Shown piece after piece: positions 3,260 to 30,568 of a DNA stretch of 64,000 nucleotides (the stretch's first letter is position 1; each line of letters opens with the position of its first letter). The notes under the pieces were generated by a model. It saw nothing but the letters and a program-made list of their open reading frames with translations. It did not search any database and had not been told where the DNA came from. Source of the DNA: a virus; IMG/VR virus record IMGVR_UViG_3300021403_000007, positions 1-64,000 of that record. One strand, written 5' to 3'. A program made the position numbers and the translations under genes.

Positions 3260-4192
3260 ATGCCTAATATTATACGCATACTCCGCTCCGCTGTCGCTGG
3301 CAATCGTCCTGCCGTATCGGCTGGCGAACCGTATATTAATTTTGCTGATATGCAGTTTGGGGTACACAATGTTGCACCGGTTGATTTGCTCGCCGTTCGG
3401 TTTTGGGTTAGTACTGCGACTTACGCGATCAACGATGTGGTACTTAGTGCGGGCGCTCTTTATGTCGCTATTGCGACGAATACCAATTCTCCACCTCCCA
3501 GTGTTAACTGGACACCGGTCGTTGGAGCGGCAACTGGTGTTGACAGTTTTAATGGTCGCACTGGTGCTGTTGTTCTTACGCTTGGTGACGTAACAACTGC
3601 CTTCCCTGCCGGTGTTACTCCACCGTTGATGAACAGTGCGGCAGCGGTGGGTATTGCGAATGCATGGGCACGCGAGGATCATGTTCATCCGAGTGATACG
3701 TCGCGACTAGCGTTAACTGGTGGCACGATGACAGGGCCGCTGGTTACAGCAGTGCCACCGACAGCGCTTGACGCTGTAAATAAAGCCTATGTTGACACAG
3801 CAGTTGGCAATCTTCAGTTATTCTTGGGGACATGGCAAGTTGCAACAGATACACCTTCTATTATGGGTGGTGGCGCAAATTCTGGTGATTATTATATCGC
3901 TGTTACTGCTAACCCAACTGTTCCCGAAAACGCACCCGCTGGTATTCCTGGCATTGGCGGCACCTCAGTAGGTAATGGTGACTTAGTAATATGGAATGGT
4001 ACAATATGGCAACAAGTAATTGGTTCTGGTCTTGTTAAAGCAGAAGCTGATCAGTTGTATGTTTCGTTAACTGGTAGCACTATGACTGGGCCGCTAACTC
4101 TGAACGCAACTCCTACAGCACTGAGTAACAATCTTGTGGCTGCAACTACAGCTTACGTTGATAATGCGATCATCGACGCTGGAGCTTATTAA
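3260..4192 (+). CDS. Modular tail fibre protein
   Basis: A 310-residue protein. Residues 1-80 (MPNIIRILRSA...ADMQFGV...) form an N-terminal module also found at the starts of the genes at 4193 and 8043, so it is probably the virion-anchoring domain. The middle contains a segment with AREDHVHPSDTSR, common in phage fibres. Two TMTGPL...YVD shaft repeats follow, at about residues 155-180 and 270-300. The start is preceded by the palindrome at 3239-3253, whose GGAG lies ten bases upstream of ATG. The C-terminus IIDAGAY echoes the IDAGAF end of the preceding gene. Receptor target unknown. Confidence 0.75.
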   Translation: MPNIIRILRSAVAGNRPAVSAGEPYINFADMQFGVHNVAPVDLLAVRFWVSTATYAINDVVLSAGALYVAIATNTNSPPPSVNWTPVVGAATGVDSFNGRTGAVVLTLGDVTTAFPAGVTPPLMNSAAAVGIANAWAREDHVHPSDTSRLALTGGTMTGPLVTAVPPTALDAVNKAYVDTAVGNLQLFLGTWQVATDTPSIMGGGANSGDYYIAVTANPTVPENAPAGIPGIGGTSVGNGDLVIWNGTIWQQVIGSGLVKAEADQLYVSLTGSTMTGPLTLNATPTALSNNLVAATTAYVDNAIIDAGAY

Positions 4193-5392
4193 GTGGTCAA
4201 TATTATACGAAATCTTCATAGTGCATCACCGGGTGTTCGCCCTGTTGGTAAATCATTGGGTGAGATTTACACGAACCTAGCTGACATGCAGTTAGGTGTT
4301 GTTAACAACACAAACACTGCTATTGATTTGATTGCAGTAAGATTTTTTAGTACATTGGCAAGTTATTTCACTGGGGATTGTGTTCTTTACAATGGGAAAA
4401 TTTATATCGCCAATGGTAATTTTGGACCGGGACCATTTAACTTACTTGACTGGAACGTTGTCACAATCGCAACGGACCTCAACCTTTATATGCCTCTTAC
4501 GGGGGGCACGTTCACCGGCGTTGTTATATTTCCTGCTAACAACAGTGTGGTGATTAACGGAGCAGCGGCAACCCAGCGAGCGCTTCTAGCTCAGACTGCT
4601 GGCGTTAACCGCTGGCAATTACAGTTTGCTGACTTCACCGCTGAAACCGGTGCTAACTCTGGGAGTAATTTTGTCCTTACGCCTTGCAACGATGCAGGCA
4701 ACCTTCTCCCTGCCGCTCTTAGAATTAATCGTGCTACTGGGGTTACTGACTTCGCAGTCACTCCCACTGTTGCAGGTGTGCCTATTGGTGGGGGTGGTGG
4801 TGCAACTGTTAGTGATACGGCTCCTACTAATCCATCAGAAGGAGATTTATGGTGGGATAGTGTTGGCGCACAAATGTATGTTTGGTACGTAGACCCCACT
4901 ACTTCTCAGTGGGTGCCAGTAATTAGTAGCACTGGACCTCCAGGACCAGTTGGGCCAGCAGGGCCAATAGGGCCACAAGGGCCAGTAGGTCCACAAGGAC
5001 CGTCAGGGACGCCCGGTGTTGGCACATATCTTCAAACCCAGCCTGCGACCACCGCGGGAATCAACCTTGTTTCAGGCTCCCTTGTGGACATCTTGTCGCT
5101 CAATTTGGGAACCGGCGTTTGGTTTGTCACTGCACAAATGCCGATCTATGGCACGACCACTAGCTCAGCCACTTTCCGGCTTTGGGACCACGGTGCAAAC
5201 ACCATCGGTGCGGGGATTACTTTTATCACCGCCGCTGCTGCTCGCAACTATGTAACGGTTTGCGGATTCGCCGTTAATCTGCCGACCGTCTGGATCGGGG
5301 TGCAGGCGAATAACGCGAACATGTCCATAAACCCCGGCGTATCGAATTTTGGCACAATCGATGTGCAGATGACCGCTTTTAGGATCGCATGA
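4193..5392 (+). CDS. Modular tail fibre with collagen-like segment
   Basis: A 399-residue protein that starts at GTG directly after the preceding stop. It has the shared N-terminal anchor module (residues 1-85), then a domain with the pattern DTAP[12 protein letters not shown]...YVWYVD...W (about residues 203-240). That pattern recurs twice in the gene at 61435. A short Gly-X-Y collagen-like stretch (about 247-275) and a C-terminal beta-rich domain of about 120 residues follow. The order anchor, shaft, collagen linker, head suggests a trimeric fibre whose last domain contacts the host. The stop overlaps the next ATG (ATGA). Confidence 0.75.
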
Positions 5393-6471
5393 TAGACTTT
5401 CCCGCCAATCCAACTATAGGCCAGCAGTTTACTGCTGTTGGAATTACTTGGACCTGGGATGGGGTTAAATGGACATTTGGTACTAGCGGTAGTGGTGATA
5501 AAATCGATATTGCGTTGTTCGGTGATGGCTCGGACAATGCAGCGACGATCTCCATTCCGACCACGTTGACCCGTGACATGTACTATTCCAACCTCACGAT
5601 CAGCCCTGGGGGTGCGCTGGTTTGTAACGGTTGGCGCGTTTTCGTTTCTGGTATTCTCGATATTTCGGCGGCTGGGGCGGGCGCAATTACCGCTTGCACT
5701 GTTCCCGCTGTGTCCAGTACGAGCGGCGTCAACAATTCAATGGGTGGCTGGGGCGCTGCCAGTGGCTTGTCCGGCTCTGGGAGTGTGTTGGGCTCCTCGC
5801 CGACCGTTCCGACAACTGTCGCGATTGTCGGCGGCGCAGGCGCGGCGGGTGGGGCGGGCGGTTCTAGTGCTGGCGTTCTTGGCGGTGGCAATGCCGGAGC
5901 GGTAGCGGCAAGTGGTTATACTATTGCTCGTCAGCGTGTTCTGACAACTTCGCTTGGCGGGTATCCCGGTAAAACCTATGCTGGTGGTGTTCCTGGCTCT
6001 GGAGGTGGTGGAGGCACCGGCTCTGGTGCGGGGACTGGGTGGGCAGGTGGTGGTGGTGCTGGCTGGCTTGCTCTATTCGCACGCACCATTAACCGTGGTG
6101 CTTCGACAGCGGTGGGCGCGATCAACGCGGCGGGCGGCAACGGTGGCAACGGGGTTGCTGGTACGACTGCGCCGTCTGGTGGCGGTGGCGGCGGCGGTGG
6201 CGGTGGCGGTGGCTGGGCCAACATTGTTTTTCGTTTTCTGACCGGGGCGGTGGCAACCAACGCGATCAATGCCTCGGGCGGCAATGGTGGCAATGGCGGT
6301 CCAGGCGCGGGCGTCGGCGGTGCAGGCGCTGGCGGTGGTGGTGGCTGGGCTGGCTATGTGACGCTCTACAACGTTGCCACTGATACGGTGACGAACTTTG
6401 GAGGGACGGGGCCGGGACTGATTAGCGGTGCAACCGGTGGACCGGGTGGTGCTGCGTTGGTGACATTATGA
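5389..6471 (+). CDS. Glycine-rich adhesin-like fibre tip
   Basis: A 360-residue protein. The first 30 residues (DFPANPTIGQQF...WTWDGVKW) are a small module shared with the gene at 9834. The rest is a beta-rich domain followed from about residue 145 by long runs of glycine broken by short hydrophobic segments, such as GGNGGNGGPG and a run of twelve glycines near residues 265-276. Polyglycine loops of this type are the receptor-binding part of T-even gp38 adhesins, so a host-recognition tip is a reasonable analogy, not a demonstrated homology. It overlaps both neighbours by four bases, which fits translational coupling. Confidence 0.65.
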   Translation: MIDFPANPTIGQQFTAVGITWTWDGVKWTFGTSGSGDKIDIALFGDGSDNAATISIPTTLTRDMYYSNLTISPGGALVCNGWRVFVSGILDISAAGAGAITACTVPAVSSTSGVNNSMGGWGAASGLSGSGSVLGSSPTVPTTVAIVGGAGAAGGAGGSSAGVLGGGNAGAVAASGYTIARQRVLTTSLGGYPGKTYAGGVPGSGGGGGTGSGAGTGWAGGGGAGWLALFARTINRGASTAVGAINAAGGNGGNGVAGTTAPSGGGGGGGGGGGGWANIVFRFLTGAVATNAINASGGNGGNGGPGAGVGGAGAGGGGGWAGYVTLYNVATDTVTNFGGTGPGLISGATGGPGGAALVTL

Positions 6472-7724
6472 TCACGATCACTGATATTCACGGTCGAGAT
6501 ATTGATATCGATATCAATGTTAACGGCGATGATATTTATACTCTTGCGGGTATTGTTTTGGTCGTTCCAACTGGAACGCCACAAGATGTTGCAGTGAACA
6601 CGATTGAGGCAATGGCTCCGTGGGATTATGTAGCACCATTACCGCCAACGACATCGGTTCCTGTTGGTGCCGGTAATCTGAATTACATTATCAACGGTGA
6701 TATGTCAATTGATCAGCGTTTTAATGGCGGTCCTAACACAATTGCCAATCCGCCTACGGGCGCATATTATTATACTTTAGACAGGTGGTCGTATTCCGCT
6801 GCCCCAGGCAGTACTCTGTCTCAAACAATGAGTCGCTATTTAACGAGTACTTTTTTAACGCCGCCACCCCCAGGATTCCCTTATTGTTTGCGCTATCTAC
6901 GCAATGCCAATTATTCTCCGCCTGGTAATCATGCCGTTTATCTCAGTCAAGGAATTGAGGGTGATTTAATTTCTGATCTTCTCTGGGGTACGTCAGATGC
7001 GAAACCTGTAACATTGTCCTTCTGGGTTTACTGTAGTGTTGCCGGCCTTCATGGCGGATCTATTAAGAATCCTAATACTGTTGGTGGACGTGGATATCCT
7101 TTCAGTTACACGGTTCCAGTTGCTAATCAATGGTCGTTTCAAATTATTCAAATTCCAGGCGATGCTACCGTTGGTGCGTGGCCAATTGGTAATGGATTAA
7201 GTATACAGCTTAACTTTGCTCTCAGTGTTGGTGGCGTTTATGCTGCTACTCCTGGTGTATGGGGACCAGGAGCAAATATTTTTGGTTCAGTTGGACAAGT
7301 TGGTTTAAACGGTATCAATAATACTTTTGCGATTACAGGAGTAAAATTAGAGGTTGGCAATGTTGCAACGCCATTCCAGTCAGAAACGCCAGCAAAAAAA
7401 CTGGCAGATTGCCAACGGTATTTTCAGATTATTGGTGCGCCAGGGACACCAAACCGTGGTTCACTTGGCGCTTCAAGCTATTCAAATTCGACTACTTTTG
7501 TTAATTACGCTGGAGTGTCATACCGTACTTTGATGCGGGCGCTTCCCACGGTGACGCTATCAAATCTGACTCAGCAGCAAGTGACTAGTATGCAAATAGG
7601 CACTATTGGTAATACAGCATGCGTGGCTCAATGGCTAAATAGTCTTACTACATCAGGGGGTCAGCTTTTCTACACGTTAAACCTTGATGCAGAACTCCTC
7701 GGACCTAGTGCTGGTTTCCCATAA
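6468..7724 (+). CDS. Tail spike/fibre with carbohydrate-binding-like C-terminal domain
   Basis: A 418-residue protein. From residue 70 on it shows a phage receptor-binding pattern also present in the C-terminal half of the gene at 8043. Its landmarks are Y-x-x-NGDM-x-x-DQR near the start, KP-x-TLSFW, an R-x-YPF-x-YT strand, PGD, and GVKLE-x-GN-x-ATPF near the end, followed by about 100 variable residues. This fold resembles jelly-roll carbohydrate-binding modules at phage fibre ends; the comparison is by pattern only. It overlaps the upstream gene by four bases. Confidence 0.65.
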   Translation: MITITDIHGRDIDIDINVNGDDIYTLAGIVLVVPTGTPQDVAVNTIEAMAPWDYVAPLPPTTSVPVGAGNLNYIINGDMSIDQRFNGGPNTIANPPTGAYYYTLDRWSYSAAPGSTLSQTMSRYLTSTFLTPPPPGFPYCLRYLRNANYSPPGNHAVYLSQGIEGDLISDLLWGTSDAKPVTLSFWVYCSVAGLHGGSIKNPNTVGGRGYPFSYTVPVANQWSFQIIQIPGDATVGAWPIGNGLSIQLNFALSVGGVYAATPGVWGPGANIFGSVGQVGLNGINNTFAITGVKLEVGNVATPFQSETPAKKLADCQRYFQIIGAPGTPNRGSLGASSYSNSTTFVNYAGVSYRTLMRALPTVTLSNLTQQQVTSMQIGTIGNTACVAQWLNSLTTSGGQLFYTLNLDAELLGPSAGFP

Positions 7725-7725
7725 C

Positions 7726-8040
7726 ATGACTTACACACTCACCAACGACCCAGGAATTATAGTTCGCGATGAAGATGGCGCGTTTATTCCTATGGACCCA
7801 TCGAACGTAGACTATCAGGTTTATCTGGCGTGGGTTGAAGAAGGGAACGAACCGAACCCAGCACCTGGCATACCAACGCCACCAATAGAAGATGTCACAC
7901 CCACCATAGAAGAGCTTGCTGAAGCCACCGCTGATCAGGAACAACGCATCCAAGTGCTTGAAAACCAAATGGCAACGTTTCAAGCCGAGTTGAAACAAAT
8001 ATCGGAACGACTTACTCCGAGAGTTAAAGGGGCTAAATAG
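7726..8040 (+). CDS. Small fibre-associated protein with C-terminal coiled coil
   Basis: A 104-residue protein starting MTYTLTNDPG, one base after the preceding stop. A longer reading from 7684 would overlap the upstream gene and seems less likely. The middle has VDYQVYLAWVEEGNEPNPAP, a phrase typical of small phage proteins next to fibre genes. The last 45 residues are strongly helical with heptads. A palindrome copy lies in the last codons. It may be a fibre chaperone or a fibre tail peptide; the function is not known. Confidence 0.6.
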   Translation: MTYTLTNDPGIIVRDEDGAFIPMDPSNVDYQVYLAWVEEGNEPNPAPGIPTPPIEDVTPTIEELAEATADQEQRIQVLENQMATFQAELKQISERLTPRVKGAK

Positions 8041-8042
8041 CC

Positions 8043-9818
8043 ATGACATCAAGAGTTCAAACCCTTCGTTCTGCCGTACCGCTGGTGCGACCTACGGGGC
8101 GTCAACCGGGAGAGTTATACGTTAATTACCCTGATAACCAATTGGGTGTTATTAACGTTTCTGCTGCTCCAATTGATTTGATTGCAATAAGATTTTTTAG
8201 TCCTTTAACAAGTTACAATATTGGTGATTTCGTTGTTTATAGTGGAGATATATGGCACGCTCTTGCACCTTCTCCACCTGGCCCCTTTATTACTGCAAAT
8301 TGGGCAACGGTAACTGGTACTGGTGGTACAGGCGGTGGTGGAGGTGTAGGTATACCTGATGCTCCGTTTGATGGTCGATTGTATGGTCGGCAAAGTGGAG
8401 TATGGTTGGCTGTTCCAACTGATTATTTACTCTTGAGCGGCGGGACTTTATCAGGGCCGTTGGTACTCGCCGCTGATCCGACTCTTCCTCTTGGTGCTGT
8501 TACCAAACAATATGTAGACGCTAATTCTAGCACCGGTGGCCCTTTTCTTCCGTTAGCTGGTGGTACTTTAACAGGGCCACTTGCTCTTAATGCTGACCCA
8601 ACAACCAATCTTCAAGCTGCTACAAAACAATATGTAGATGCACATTCTGGCACAGGTGGAGGTGCTGGTTATCTTCCGTTAACCGGTGGCACTCTAACAG
8701 GACCGCTCACCCTTGCCGCTGATCCAACTGTTCCTCTTGGCACTGCTACAAAAGAATATGTTGATAATAGTATTACGGCAGCAATTGCTGGTATTAGTGG
8801 CGGGGTTGCGTCTAATACTAATTATGTTGTTAACGGGGATATGATACTAGATCAACGTAATAATCCTGCATCGATTACAGTTACTGGTGGATTATATTAT
8901 CCGGCTGATTTTTGGACCTCAGCCAATCTTCAATTGAGAGCAGGGACTTTACAACGAGTTACTATTACTTTGCCTACTGATCCTTTTTTTGTTGCTAGTA
9001 ACTTGTCTAATTATCTTATGTTTACGCCGACTCAACTTACATCAATACTCAGTTCTGATTATACTTATTTCCAAGTAGCACTTCCTCTTAACAGTATGGC
9101 CGCAGCTTTGGCTGGCACGCCAAATGCAAAACCGTTAACATTGTCATTTTGGGTTAGATGTGCTACTTTAACTGGGACATTTAGTGGGTCATTAGTTTTC
9201 ATTGGTGCCGGGGCACGGTCATATCCGTTCACTTATACTATTCCAACAGCTAACTTATGGACAAAGATTACAATCCCAATACCAGGCGATACGAATTCTC
9301 AAGTGTGGTCTCTTAATCATATGTCTGTTTATTTTGATATGGGTTGTGGGTCGTTGTTTCGTACGACTGCTAATGCTTGGGTTAATGGTGAATTTTTCGG
9401 TGTTACTGGATCAGCGACCCCTTGTACAACTCCTAGTAGAAGTTTTTCTGTTGGTGGGGTTAAACTAGAAATTGGTAATGTTGCAACACCTTTTATTCCT
9501 TCGAACCCTAGTGCGGTATTGGCGGCTGCACAAAAATACTATCAGAGTTATAGTAACTTGTCAGTTAGTGGTGCTGTTATGGGTATTGGTTCGAGTGGTT
9601 ATGTTATGAATAATTCATTTACATTTCCAGAAATGGCAGGCGTTCCAACAATTACTGTGTCACAGGGTAGTATTGCCAATACGAACGCAGGGATAGCATC
9701 AATAGTGTCGGGTTCAATTACACCCAATTCGTTTCAAGCACAGGCTTCTACCAATGTCGCTACGCCACCTGGAACGTGTGTTAGTAATTTTAATGCTGTT
9801 CTGTCGGTGTTAACTTAA
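8043..9818 (+). CDS. Modular tail fibre, anchor + three shaft repeats + binding domain
   Basis: A 591-residue fibre that combines modules of its neighbours. Residues 1-90 are the anchor module seen at 3260 and 4193. Residues 100-125 hold the DAP-x-DG...YGR...W module. Residues 130-245 are three successive GGTL-x-GPL...YVD repeats. From about residue 258 comes the NGDM...GVKLE-x-GN-x-ATPF domain shared with the gene at 6468. Such mosaic structure fits recombination between fibre genes within the phage. A new tail-end domain of about 100 residues probably sets specificity. Confidence 0.75.
   Translation: MTSRVQTLRSAVPLVRPTGRQPGELYVNYPDNQLGVINVSAAPIDLIAIRFFSPLTSYNIGDFVVYSGDIWHALAPSPPGPFITANWATVTGTGGTGGGGGVGIPDAPFDGRLYGRQSGVWLAVPTDYLLLSGGTLSGPLVLAADPTLPLGAVTKQYVDANSSTGGPFLPLAGGTLTGPLALNADPTTNLQAATKQYVDAHSGTGGGAGYLPLTGGTLTGPLTLAADPTVPLGTATKEYVDNSITAAIAGISGGVASNTNYVVNGDMILDQRNNPASITVTGGLYYPADFWTSANLQLRAGTLQRVTITLPTDPFFVASNLSNYLMFTPTQLTSILSSDYTYFQVALPLNSMAAALAGTPNAKPLTLSFWVRCATLTGTFSGSLVFIGAGARSYPFTYTIPTANLWTKITIPIPGDTNSQVWSLNHMSVYFDMGCGSLFRTTANAWVNGEFFGVTGSATPCTTPSRSFSVGGVKLEIGNVATPFIPSNPSAVLAAAQKYYQSYSNLSVSGAVMGIGSSGYVMNNSFTFPEMAGVPTITVSQGSIANTNAGIASIVSGSITPNSFQAQASTNVATPPGTCVSNFNAVLSVLT
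8429..8770 (+). repeat. Three tandem fibre-shaft repeats
   Basis: Three imperfect direct repeats of about 120 bases encode GGTL-x-GPL-x-L-x-ADPT...K-x-YVD, each followed by a short glycine/serine linker in the first two. They lie inside the fibre gene at 8043. The unit matches the DTMTG shaft repeats elsewhere in the window. Copy number could change by slippage or homologous recombination. Confidence 0.75.
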
Positions 9819-27627: not shown

Positions 27628-27656
27628 TTGACAAGTGTTAAGAACTGTGCTAAGGT
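27628..27656 (+). promoter_or_regulatory. Sigma70-like promoter of the accessory cassette
   Basis: A perfect -35 TTGACA (27628-27633), a 17-base spacer and a -10 TAAGGT (27651-27656). It lacks the GTCAGGTTGTA box of the three main promoters, so the cassette downstream is probably expressed independently of them. Confidence 0.7.
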
Positions 27657-27664
27657 CTATCTAT

Positions 27665-27688
27665 TGCAAGGGAAATAGTTCTCTTGCA
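27665..27688 (+). promoter_or_regulatory. Leader hairpin before the Pro-rich gene
   Basis: A 10-base-pair inverted repeat, TGCAAGGGAA-ATAG-TTCTCTTGCA with one G-T pair, sits between the promoter and the AGGAGAG ribosome site. It would form a stable stem-loop at the 5' end of the transcript and may stabilise the mRNA or control initiation. Confidence 0.6.
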
Positions 27689-27705
27689 TGTCTAGGAGAG
27701 AAGCG

Positions 27706-28368
27706 ATGCCAATGGTAAGAGGCTTCCTGCGCATCATCAAGCGCAGAGACAGATGGGGTCGCCCAGTTGATCCAGATTACGGCATTGACGAGGGTGATTT
27801 GGAAGAAGGTGGTGGAGAAGACGGCGGCGAATATCCTGATCAGGGTCTTCCCGGTCGTCCTCCTGGTTTCTGGGGTGGTGAACGTCCTAGTTTCCCCGGT
27901 CGTCCCGGTCAAGGGTTGCCTCGGCCGCCTCGTCCAACTGATCCCGATTGGGGTCTTGAAGAAGGTGGTGGCATCTGGGGCGGTCCAGGTCGTCCCCCAC
28001 GTCCTCCGCATGTATGGCCGCGGCCTCCCGGTGGTGGGCTTCCGGTTGATCCAGGCTGGGGTATCGGTGGCAGGTGGCCGGAACGGCCCAGTCACGGTTT
28101 GCCAATTTTCCCGTCTATCCCCGGCAAGCCTGACAACTCTCTGCCTCCGGTCGAGGGTGAAGGTCCGCCTCCGACTGATCCGCCTCCGGGCACGATCTGG
28201 CCGCCGTTGCCTCCTGGTGTTCCAGGTGGTAAGGCAATTGCTCTTGTGGCGATTTCCGGCGTCGGTTATCGCTATGTCGTGATCACCATTCCGCCGCCGG
28301 GGCCTGGACAGGGCTTGCCCCCTTCGCGTCCCGGTGAACCGGAAGTCGATCCTACGCGTCGGCGTTAA
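27706..28368 (+). CDS. Pro/Gly-rich protein of accessory cassette
   Basis: A 220-residue protein starting MPMVRGFLRI after a strong AGGAGAG ribosome site. An upstream in-frame ATG at 27688 lies inside the leader hairpin and is less likely. The body repeats phrases such as GLPGRPPGFWGG, PTDPDWGLEEGG and PVDPGWGIGG, with many W and P residues. A hydrophobic strand-rich piece (IALVAISGVGYRYVVITIPPP) follows near the end. There is no signal peptide. Similar proline-rich proteins are known to me from phages of alphaproteobacteria, with no assigned function. Higher GC than its neighbours suggests acquisition. Confidence 0.6.
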   Translation: MPMVRGFLRIIKRRDRWGRPVDPDYGIDEGDLEEGGGEDGGEYPDQGLPGRPPGFWGGERPSFPGRPGQGLPRPPRPTDPDWGLEEGGGIWGGPGRPPRPPHVWPRPPGGGLPVDPGWGIGGRWPERPSHGLPIFPSIPGKPDNSLPPVEGEGPPPTDPPPGTIWPPLPPGVPGGKAIALVAISGVGYRYVVITIPPPGPGQGLPPSRPGEPEVDPTRRR

Positions 28369-28369
28369 G

Positions 28370-28384
28370 TTACTCTCAGAGTAA
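28370..28384. repeat. Perfect-arm palindrome copy between genes
   Basis: TTACTC-TCA-GAGTAA begins two bases after the stop of the Pro-rich gene and just before a G6/C6 hairpin. It separates the two accessory genes. Confidence 0.85.
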
Positions 28385-28388
28385 AGGG

Positions 28389-28407
28389 CGGGGGGATCGT
28401 CCCCCCG
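28389..28407 (+). terminator. GC hairpin after Pro-rich gene
   Basis: CG6-ATCGT-C6G forms a very stable stem, followed by TTCATCTC and not a clean T-run. It is probably a terminator or an attenuating hairpin between the two accessory genes. Confidence 0.55.
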
Positions 28408-28433
28408 TTCATCTCAAAAATGGAGCTAGTCAC

Positions 28434-29165
28434 ATGAAGAGATTTCTATTGGGTGCAGTTGCCCTTGCAAGTATGGTCACACCCGCCCTTGCTACACTAC
28501 AGCTTTCAATCACTGACGGAACATCAACCTTCTCCTGCCGCGATGGTCAGCTTGGTTGCGATCTCAGCGGTGGAGCAAATAACCTACTGGTGGTTGACAC
28601 CACACTCGATGGGTTCTTTGTGCAGGTCACATTGGCCCAATCGACGTTTGGCACCCACAACGTTCTGCAATTGTCTTCTGCTAATATCGAGAATAACGGC
28701 AGTGCGACGGGGACAATTAGCTTTGTCGCCAGTGACACTAACTTTCATGCCCCTGTTAACACCATCGAGGAAAGCGGATCACTAACGTTTAACAACAGTG
28801 TCGGTTCAGGCCCGTCAAGTGTTAGCTTTTTTGCTGACCATGCGAACGGGCAGGGTGCAAACCCGCTGAACACACCGGGGTCATTGCTCGACACATTCAG
28901 CGATACACCGGTAACTAACCCCGACTCATTCTCTGGCACTCACCTGTCGTCGTTTGTTTCTGGTTCGCCGTTCAGCATGACAGAAAGTGCTTCACTCAAC
29001 CTGATCGCTGGTGGGAGTGTTACTGGTTTCGACCAGTCAATGACGGCTTCGGTTGTACCCGAGACGTCTACGTGGGTGATGATGTTACTGGGCTTTGTCG
29101 GCTTAGGGTTTGCAGGAATGCGGAGAACCCCCGTTCGCTTCCTCGACCGCACCCAACTAGGCTGA
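28434..29165 (+). CDS. PEP-CTERM-type secreted surface protein
   Basis: A 243-residue protein. Residues 1-20 are a Sec signal peptide (MKRFLLGAVALASMVTPALA). The body is rich in S, T, N and G and looks beta-rich, with a disulfide-sized C-x-x-x-x-x-x-C near residue 35. The C-terminus reads VVPETSTWVMMLLGFVGLGF then AGMRR: a short PExxxW motif, a hydrophobic helix and a terminal arginine cluster. This is the arrangement of PEP-CTERM signals (alphaproteobacterial PEPxxWA type) handled by exosortase. Residues after MRR extend the tail by about ten. The phage has no exosortase, so it would depend on that of the host. This is best viewed as a 'moron' that changes the surface of the infected or lysogenised cell. 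Confidence 0.82.
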   Translation: MKRFLLGAVALASMVTPALATLQLSITDGTSTFSCRDGQLGCDLSGGANNLLVVDTTLDGFFVQVTLAQSTFGTHNVLQLSSANIENNGSATGTISFVASDTNFHAPVNTIEESGSLTFNNSVGSGPSSVSFFADHANGQGANPLNTPGSLLDTFSDTPVTNPDSFSGTHLSSFVSGSPFSMTESASLNLIAGGSVTGFDQSMTASVVPETSTWVMMLLGFVGLGFAGMRRTPVRFLDRTQLG

Positions 29166-29174
29166 CAACAGTGG

Positions 29175-29217
29175 CGGGGAGCCTTTTGGCCGCAACCTTT
29201 GGCTCCCCGTTACTTTT
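29175..29217 (+). terminator. Intrinsic terminator after the PEP-CTERM gene
   Basis: A nine-base-pair stem CGGGGAGCC/GGCTCCCCG with a 17-base loop is followed by TTACTTTT. It is a convincing rho-independent terminator that closes the accessory cassette before the lysis genes. Confidence 0.8.
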
Positions 29218-29961: not shown

Positions 29962-30263
29962 TGGACCTCACTAACGTACCTAGACCCCCTATCCCGAAAA
30001 TAATGGACTACCCTGGCGCAGTTACGGTGGGGTTTGTTGTTATATTTGCTACTATAATGTTATTTGTTACCAATCGTTTCGACAGCACAGGTGGCACCTT
30101 AACGATATCGTTGATTGTGGTGCTAGCGTTTGTTGCTGTTGTAGCGTTCTCTTTGATATTCGCCATCCCGGCAGACGACGAGGTTACTCCCGGAGTAGTA
30201 GGTGGCCTCGTCGCCGCTTTCGGTGCAGTGGTTGCTTATTGGTTAGGCAAGGCCAAAGGCTGA
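29961..30263 (+). CDS. Holin candidate
   Basis: A 100-residue membrane protein whose ATG overlaps the endolysin stop (TAATG). Hydrophobic segments lie at about residues 19-37, 46-68 and 78-95, giving three transmembrane helices, and the C-terminus is short and basic (GKAKG). Topology, size and coupling to the endolysin fit a class I holin, which opens the inner membrane so that the lysozyme can reach the wall. Confidence 0.7.
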   Translation: MDLTNVPRPPIPKIMDYPGAVTVGFVVIFATIMLFVTNRFDSTGGTLTISLIVVLAFVAVVAFSLIFAIPADDEVTPGVVGGLVAAFGAVVAYWLGKAKG

Positions 30264-30568
30264 TCGCTTAGTTGTAATTCGCTAGGTGTATTAGTTTCGT
30301 AATATTGCCTTAACAACCCAATACCTTTTAAGTGGTCTAATTGATCCTGTGTAATCTGCGGGGCATTATTCTCCCATATTCCACTCAAATCCGGCAGTGG
30401 GATTTCCCGAGCGGGAAGGGGTGCAACCTCAATAGGGTATAGTTTTGACTTGGTGGCACGATTGTACACCCCTCCACAATGTTGTGGTGTTGGGTAGTTC
30501 CACACTCTAAAGCAGTGAGCCTGTACGGGTGTTACTCCTATAGTAAGGACAACGATTGCTCTCCACAT
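30236..30568 (-). CDS. Small secreted protein, HC...W-YP-PQHC type
   Basis: A 110-residue protein with a signal peptide (MWRAIVVLTIGVTPVQA) and then HCFRVWNYPTPQHCGG, a pattern I associate with small exported proteins of alphaproteobacterial phages. A proline-rich middle and a polar helical tail follow. It starts after TAGGAGAGCAAA and overlaps the 3' end of the holin candidate on the other strand by 28 bases. A spanin-like lysis role is possible from the position but not shown; there is no lipobox. Confidence 0.6.
   Translation of the reverse strand: MWRAIVVLTIGVTPVQAHCFRVWNYPTPQHCGGVYNRATKSKLYPIEVAPLPAREIPLPDLSGIWENNAPQITQDQLDHLKGIGLLRQYYETNTPSELQLSDQPLALPNQ

What the first reader, a model, noticed from the sequence alone, without database searches (positions are those of the whole stretch)
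27628..29217. Accessory cassette with a phage-encoded PEP-CTERM surface protein
The gene at 28434 has a signal peptide and a C-terminal PETSTW motif, hydrophobic helix and arginine cluster, as in PEP-CTERM/exosortase substrates of alphaproteobacteria. It lies in a unit with its own promoter, leader hairpin, a Pro/Gly-rich gene and terminators on both sides. No exosortase is in the window, so the phage would use the host sorting system. A phage placing a sorted protein on the host surface could exclude other phages or alter biofilm. I know of no well-described case.
Basis: partly seen in the sequence, partly recalled or inferred. Interest (0 to 1): 0.85.

Follow-up and report, generated by a model that had tools for sequence, protein, structure and literature searches.

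The report
Phage genes borrowing host surface-sorting system
Many soil phages carry a small add-on gene for a secreted protein with the address label (PEP-CTERM) that bacteria use to place their own proteins on the cell surface, and the middle of that protein has been swapped while the label was kept, so these phages probably use the host's sorting machinery to change the surface of the infected cell.

Summary
ORF 28434-29165 (243 aa) has a signal peptide, an all-beta body and a C-terminal PETSTW/helix/arginine tail. Alone it scores below the curated PEP-CTERM cut-offs, but it belongs to a family on 47 IMG/VR contigs. All 44 full-length members keep the tripartite tail, 37 of 40 match PEPxxWA-CTERM, and several pass the cut-offs. 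No relative was found in two prefiltered scans of 84,980 prokaryote genomes or in isolate phages or plasmids. A second body family (B) lies on about 66 further contigs, and 48 of its 49 distinct members carry the tail. None of 34 phage records encodes an exosortase, so the host's would have to be used. The gene is accessory: it occupies several unrelated genome positions and lies beside the integrase in three temperate phages. Bodies were replaced with breakpoints close to the signal-peptide/body and body/tail borders while both ends and the flanks stayed; elsewhere the body moved alone between unrelated phages. Bodies are under purifying selection (dN/dS 0.08-0.29); tails and signal peptides diverge but keep their features. 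Best reading: a phage-borne, swappable surface-display cassette that uses host exosortase, perhaps for superinfection exclusion. Host, sorting and function are untested. The promoter and leader hairpin are not above chance.

The parts
28434..29165 (+). phage PEP-CTERM protein gene (243 aa): signal peptide + all-beta body + sorting tail
28434..28493 (+). signal peptide, aa 1-20 (MKRFLLGAVALASMVTPALA), type I AxA site, no lipobox Cys
   Evidence: alignment A2: Ala18 and Ala20 invariant in 40 sequences
28494..29054 (+). mature body, predicted beta-sandwich (CBM/adhesin-like arrangement), aa 21-207; unit that is swapped or moved between phages
   Evidence: AF2 pLDDT 84; folds; body-only transfer and replacement in relatives
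29055..29162 (+). PEP-CTERM sorting tail: VPETSTW, helix 211-230, MRR..R
   Evidence: NF035944 at 29055-29126, E 1.5e-6 in the genome search
27706..28368 (+). Pro/Gly-rich protein gene (220 aa, DQGLP-type repeats), frequent upstream neighbour of phage PEP-CTERM genes, but also found without them
28386..28410 (+). 11-bp G+C-rich hairpin between the two genes, no T run
   Evidence: fold z -4.0
29170..29214 (+). 14-bp hairpin followed by TTTT, terminator-like, just before the endolysin gene
   Evidence: fold z -4.0
27628..27656 (+). possible promoter (TTGACA - 17 nt - TAAGGT); not above chance
   Evidence: sequence; scan

Best explanation
The gene is a phage-carried accessory gene (moron) for an exported protein that is a substrate of the host's exosortase. 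Sec exports the protein, signal peptidase removes the N-terminal peptide, the C-terminal helix holds it in the inner membrane, and the host exosortase recognises the PE(P)..W motif and releases it to the cell surface or exopolysaccharide layer. The phage supplies only cargo; the sorting enzyme is the host's. Evolution treats the two ends as a fixed delivery frame and the body as exchangeable cargo, as expected of a protein whose job is to place different extracellular domains on the infected or lysogenic cell. The most likely job is to change adsorption at the surface: to block superinfecting phages, or to stop progeny from sticking to infected cells and debris (my estimate 35-40% for this step). 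SHOWN by sequence: signal peptide, tail, conservation, accessory status, domain swaps, no phage exosortase. INFERRED: processing by host exosortase and surface location. SPECULATIVE: exclusion.
For: Tail: kept in all 44 full-length homologues from 47 IMG/VR contigs; 37/40 match NF035944 (best 1.5e-10) and relatives exceed curated cut-offs. Three members (L038, L039, L041) carry the other PEP-CTERM subtype (TIGR02595, 26.1 bits for L038) on the same body: a change of label, not loss. Second body family B: 48 of 49 distinct members carry PE..W-type tails; mean pairwise identity body 88%, tail 47%, signal peptide 50%, yet PE, Trp, helix and positive end persist in 39/40; family A 66/44/41%. Swaps: L007 (A) and L130 (B) share 82-89% DNA in the TerL side, tail and portal side but have unrelated bodies; L093 or L079 against L080: homology runs through codon ~25, stops, and resumes at or within a residue of the PEP motif. 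L005 and L009, unrelated outside the gene, share only the body (94.6% aa) with different tails (38.9%). Bodies under purifying selection, dN/dS 0.08-0.29. Accessory: 8/8 phages with TerL >=74% identical have a PEP-CTERM gene between TerL and portal, 0/26 with TerL 49-60% do, and at least five of those contigs carry a family-B gene elsewhere; other positions are tail-lysis, ejection protein-endolysin, helicase/structural switch and scaffold-capsid; beside integrase in L017, L020, L029. Syntenic Rhizobium phage RHph_TM27A lacks it. Tandem second PEP-CTERM genes in at least 8 phages. No exosortase in 34 records.
Against: The host is unknown; the nearest isolates infect Rhizobium or Ochrobactrum, and a related Rhizobiaceae genus (Shinella) lacks PEP-CTERM proteins (PMC9012009). 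The window protein alone is below every curated PEP-CTERM cut-off. Nothing shows processing, surface location or exclusion. Most of these phages have no detectable integrase (8 of 34 have one), and exclusion is most easily pictured for lysogens. The absence from bacterial genomes rests on a pattern-prefiltered scan.
Confidence: 0.72

Rival explanations
1. Same delivery, different purpose: the sorted beta-sandwich binds host exopolysaccharide and changes aggregation or biofilm (keeps or breaks flocs) rather than excluding phages.
For: PEP-CTERM proteins such as PepA hold exopolysaccharide in flocs (PMC9012009, PMC9850573 title). Nine of 40 members give a sub-cut-off match to floc_PepA (best 2.3e-12, 47.3 bits, cut-off 80, L038, spanning aa 8-237). 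Fold matches include carbohydrate-binding modules and SGBP-B.
Against: floc_PepA cut-off not reached; structural Z of 9 or less is within the range of chance beta-sandwich matches; body swapping into unrelated families fits exclusion or receptor change at least as well.
Confidence: 0.3
2. An envelope protein of the lysis programme: the C-terminal helix is a plain anchor and the body acts in the periplasm (spanin-like or outer-membrane disruption), with the PEP resemblance incidental.
For: In the window and in L002, L014 and L006 the gene lies beside endolysin/holin genes.
Against: Elsewhere it lies between TerL and portal, scaffold and capsid, or beside integrase. No lipobox as in unimolecular spanins. 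A plain anchor would not keep PE and W while the rest of the tail diverges to 44-47% identity.
Confidence: 0.1
3. A host-derived passenger gene picked up by phages without benefit.
For: Signal peptide and tail types look like ordinary alphaproteobacterial PEPxxWA-CTERM proteins; family B bodies weakly resemble the FxDxF PEP-CTERM family.
Against: Purifying selection on bodies, more than 100 contigs, tandem copies, and no relative found in 84,980 genomes.
Confidence: 0.04
4. A virion component displayed on the particle.
For: In some phages it is embedded in head or tail genes (L003, L039).
Against: Signal peptide and membrane-sorting tail would send it out of the cytoplasm where heads and tails assemble; its position is not tied to any structural gene.
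Confidence: 0.03

Closest known systems
PEP-CTERM / exosortase (EpsH/Xrt) substrates of Gram-negative bacteria (Haft et al. 2006, PMC1569441)
   Same: Signal peptide, near-invariant PE(P) motif, helix, basic C-terminus; PEPxxWA and classic PEP-CTERM subtypes; several per genome
   Different: Encoded by phages that carry no exosortase; body families with no bacterial relative found; ends and bodies recombine between phages
Flocculation protein PepA (NF033554) of Zoogloea
   Same: Secreted PEP-CTERM protein; weak full-length profile similarity in some members (47 bits, cut-off 80)
   Different: Below cut-off; chromosomal in Zoogloea and tied to an exopolysaccharide locus
SasX, cell wall-anchored surface protein encoded by a phi-SPbeta-like prophage of Staphylococcus aureus (PMC10232760)
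   Same: Phage-borne gene for a surface protein anchored by the host's own sortase; promotes aggregation
   Different: Gram-positive sortase and LPXTG signal, one prophage type; here a Gram-negative exosortase signal across many phages with swappable bodies
Phage superinfection-exclusion lipoproteins (for example T5 Llp; from memory)
   Same: Small exported phage proteins placed in the host envelope
   Different: Lipoprotein route; here no lipobox and a C-terminal sorting tail instead
TIGR03118 proteins reported among gene transfers in hot-spring viruses (PMC11003980)
   Same: Viral genes whose family has a putative exosortase-interaction C-terminus
   Different: Mentioned only as counts; different family and no analysis of sorting

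Membership tests
PEP-CTERM exosortase substrates | C-terminal tripartite signal: PE(P) motif, hydrophobic helix, basic cluster | tested here: met
   Sequence and family alignment; 44/44 full-length homologues
PEP-CTERM exosortase substrates | N-terminal Sec signal peptide | tested here: met
   Charged start, hydrophobic core, AxA invariant in A2; no dedicated signal-peptide predictor was available
PEP-CTERM exosortase substrates | Curated profile cut-off (NF035944 35, TIGR02595 16, PF07589 20.7), window protein itself | tested here: not met
   22.0, 12.6 and 17.6 bits
PEP-CTERM exosortase substrates | Curated profile cut-off, relatives of the same family | tested here: met
   L032 NF035944 40.8; L038 TIGR02595 26.1; 10 of 33 records over the NF035944 cut-off
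PEP-CTERM exosortase substrates | Cognate exosortase in the same cell | not testable with these tools
   None in phages; host unidentified and no bacterial genome could be reached as a centre
PEP-CTERM exosortase substrates | Cleavage/processing by exosortase | not testable with these tools
   Needs experiment
floc_PepA (NF033554) | Equivalog cut-off of 80 bits | tested here: not met
   Best relative 47.3 bits; window protein not matched
Unimolecular spanin / lipoprotein exclusion factor | Lipobox Cys at the signal-peptide cleavage site | tested here: not met
   No Cys near the cleavage site in 40 family A sequences
SasX-like LPXTG surface proteins | LPXTG sorting motif | tested here: not met
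   C-terminus carries PETSTW instead
Carbohydrate-binding beta-sandwich domains | Close structural match | tested here: inconclusive
   Best Z 9.1 (8okh), SGBP-B 8.6, CBM61 7.9: within the range of common arrangements
Phage moron / accessory gene | Presence/absence among relatives and several insertion positions | tested here: met
   8/8 against 0/26 in the TerL-portal slot; five or more other positions

The most novel reading that the evidence does not exclude
Gram-negative phages possess a dedicated, recombining system of surface-display cassettes: conserved signal-peptide and exosortase-tail ends between which unrelated extracellular domains are exchanged, using the host exosortase to re-coat infected or lysogenic cells, with the tail subtype adjusted to the host's exosortase.
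Probability: 0.5. Interest if true: 0.85.

Novelty: new variant of a known kind. Interest (0 to 1): 0.72.

Why it matters
It would be the first described case that I could find of phages using the exosortase/PEP-CTERM pathway, a protein-sorting route that is widespread in environmental Gram-negative bacteria and still poorly understood. More than 100 phage contigs carry such genes, so surface change by phages through this route may be common in soil. The natural body swaps give ready-made constructs for testing what the tail specifies, and link exosortase biology to phage exclusion or biofilm change.

Tried and rejected
Promoter and leader hairpin: not above shuffles. Phage-encoded exosortase: none in 34 records, while the control search rings in genomes that have it. 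The first own-genome search with TIGR02595 rang nowhere, controls included, and was discarded as uninformative. Bacterial homologues: none in two pattern-prefiltered scans of 84,980 genomes or in plasmids; distant ones may be missed. Isolate phages: no homologue of family A, of B or of one tandem paralogue; a 24-kb stretch of the window has no near relative there. Obligate two-gene unit: rejected, since the Pro/Gly-rich gene occurs within 1 kb of 11/46 A and 22/64 B loci, but also in 10/45 loci of portal relatives that showed no PEP-CTERM gene in the DNA held. Host taxonomy: relatives cannot be drawn for a virus record. Structure of family B: all-beta with a C-terminal helix but pLDDT 67.5, so not searched. 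L124 first seemed to lack the tail; reading its frame showed VIPEPSTWCMM..WRR, a gap in my first pattern. L047/L048 are two pieces of one interrupted copy. One family B member (L224) has a different C-terminus, VPGPVVGAGLPG-helix-RRK, that no NCBIfam model matches.

Full report
WHAT IS THERE. The window is nearly all of a 64,494-bp virus record: a tailed phage with TerL, head-tail adaptor/portal, capsid, ejection and replication genes. Its closest isolates are Rhizobium phages RHph_TM27A and relatives (portal 50%, TerL 43% identity). PEP-CTERM models align at aa 208-231, each below its curated cut-off.

THE FAMILY. One profile-like scan of IMG/VR gave 48 loci on 47 contigs. Reading the frames gave 44 full-length members (window included), three cut by contig ends, and one interrupted copy (L047/L048). 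Every full-length member ends in PE, a helix and R/K. In the alignment of 40 the AxA cleavage site, two body cysteines and PE are invariant; Trp is present in 37. NF035944 (PEPxxWA-CTERM) matches 37 of 40, best 1.5e-10; L032 scores 40.8 against the cut-off of 35. L038, L039 and L041 instead carry the classic PEP-CTERM type (L038: TIGR02595 26.1 bits, cut-off 16). No relative was found among isolate phages, plasmids or, by two prefiltered scans, 84,980 prokaryote genomes. At least eight of these phages carry a second, different PEP-CTERM gene beside the first.

NO PHAGE EXOSORTASE. PF09721 finds nothing in 34 phage records, while the control search rings in genomes that have it. Sorting, if it happens, must be by the host enzyme.

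AN ACCESSORY GENE. The neighbourhoods fall into at least five kinds: TerL-portal, scaffold-capsid, tail collar-lysis, ejection protein-endolysin, and helicase/structural strand switch. I fetched portal relatives of one carrier and asked what lies between TerL and portal: all 8 contigs with TerL at least 74% identical have a PEP-CTERM gene there (L124 by hand), and none of the 26 with TerL at 49-60% has. At least five of those 26 contigs carry a family-B gene elsewhere (compare contig names). Eight of 34 records have a tyrosine integrase; in L017, L020 and L029 it lies next to the PEP gene and converges on it. RHph_TM27A, syntenic with the window across this region, has no such gene.

SWAPPED BODIES, KEPT ENDS. 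A second body family (B) replaces family A at the same slot. It has 49 distinct full-length members on about 66 contigs; 47 match the tail pattern, L172 has PEL, and L224 has a different tripartite tail. In B the mean pairwise identity is 88% in the body but 47% in the tail and 50% in the signal peptide; in A it is 66, 44 and 41%. In three pairs that hold different bodies at the same locus the flanks and ends are homologous at 80-90% DNA identity and the body is not. In L093/L080 homology runs through codon 25, stops, and resumes at the PEP motif; L079/L080 behaves alike; in L007/L130 upstream homology ends just before the gene and resumes at the PEP motif (with bodies compared). The reverse also occurs: L005 and L009 share nothing but the body (94.6% aa) and have different signal peptides and tails. 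dN/dS of bodies is 0.08-0.29. These patterns are what selection would produce if the ends are a delivery frame and the body the cargo.

FOLD. AlphaFold2 gives a beta-sandwich (pLDDT 84) and a C-terminal helix 211-230. The best structural matches (Bdellovibrio Bd1399, SGBP-B, CBM61, adhesin and tailspike domains; Z 9.1 to 7) are carbohydrate-binding or adhesive beta-sandwiches, but such Z values are common. I take the fold as extracellular-type, not as proof of sugar binding.

THE PRO/GLY-RICH GENE. It belongs to a common phage family (62 loci). A PEP-CTERM gene lies in about 18 of these loci, often 20-200 bp downstream, but many copies have none. It is a preferred neighbour, not a fixed partner. 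The hairpins around the PEP gene are strong; the proposed promoter and leader hairpin are not above chance.

MECHANISM. Sec export, anchoring by the tail helix, recognition by host exosortase and release to the surface follow from established knowledge of PEP-CTERM proteins (PMC1569441; PMC11980579) and are inferred here. Function is open. I favour interference with adsorption (exclusion of other phages, or keeping progeny off infected cells), because the cargo is exchangeable, the gene is accessory and mobile, and it occurs in temperate and apparently non-temperate phages. Change of aggregation is the main rival. Lysis, virion and passenger readings fit less well.

NOVELTY. The papers held contain no account of phage-encoded PEP-CTERM proteins; one lists 13 TIGR03118 genes among viral gene transfers (PMC11003980). 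The nearest known kind is the prophage-encoded, sortase-anchored SasX of Staphylococcus (PMC10232760). I therefore call this a new variant of a known kind.

Noticed in passing
window 30236-30568 (-): Small secreted Cys-containing protein (AHCFRVWNYPTPQHC) of unknown function, conserved near the lysis or PEP genes in several otherwise different phages (cluster c4, six loci).
   Followed up: no
window 3260-9818 (+): Several tail-fibre genes at 3260, 4193 and 8043 share a similar N-terminus (..RxLxSAxPxxRP..GExYxNxxDxQxGV), suggesting multiple receptor-binding proteins.
   Followed up: no
L224 1339-1998: A family B protein whose PEP-CTERM tail is replaced by VPGPVVGAGLPG-helix-TRRKAR, possibly another, uncatalogued C-terminal sorting signal; no NCBIfam match.
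   Followed up: partly
window 27706-28368 and 62 IMG/VR loci: Widespread phage Pro/Gly-rich protein family with DQGLP repeats and, in several members, a short C-terminal ISGVGYRYVVI-type beta segment; no Pfam, NCBIfam or PHROG match.
   Followed up: partly
L006 5757-6632, L014 5736-6533, L016 5773-6546, L021 5134-5820, L022, L025, L044: Further PEP-CTERM body families in tandem with family A; at least six body clusters seen.
   Followed up: partly
L235 (Rhizobium phage RHph_TM27A) 30249-33332: The gene deposited as 'putative integrase' is the homologue of the window's 964-aa primase/helicase-like protein (28% identity); probably misannotated.
   Followed up: no
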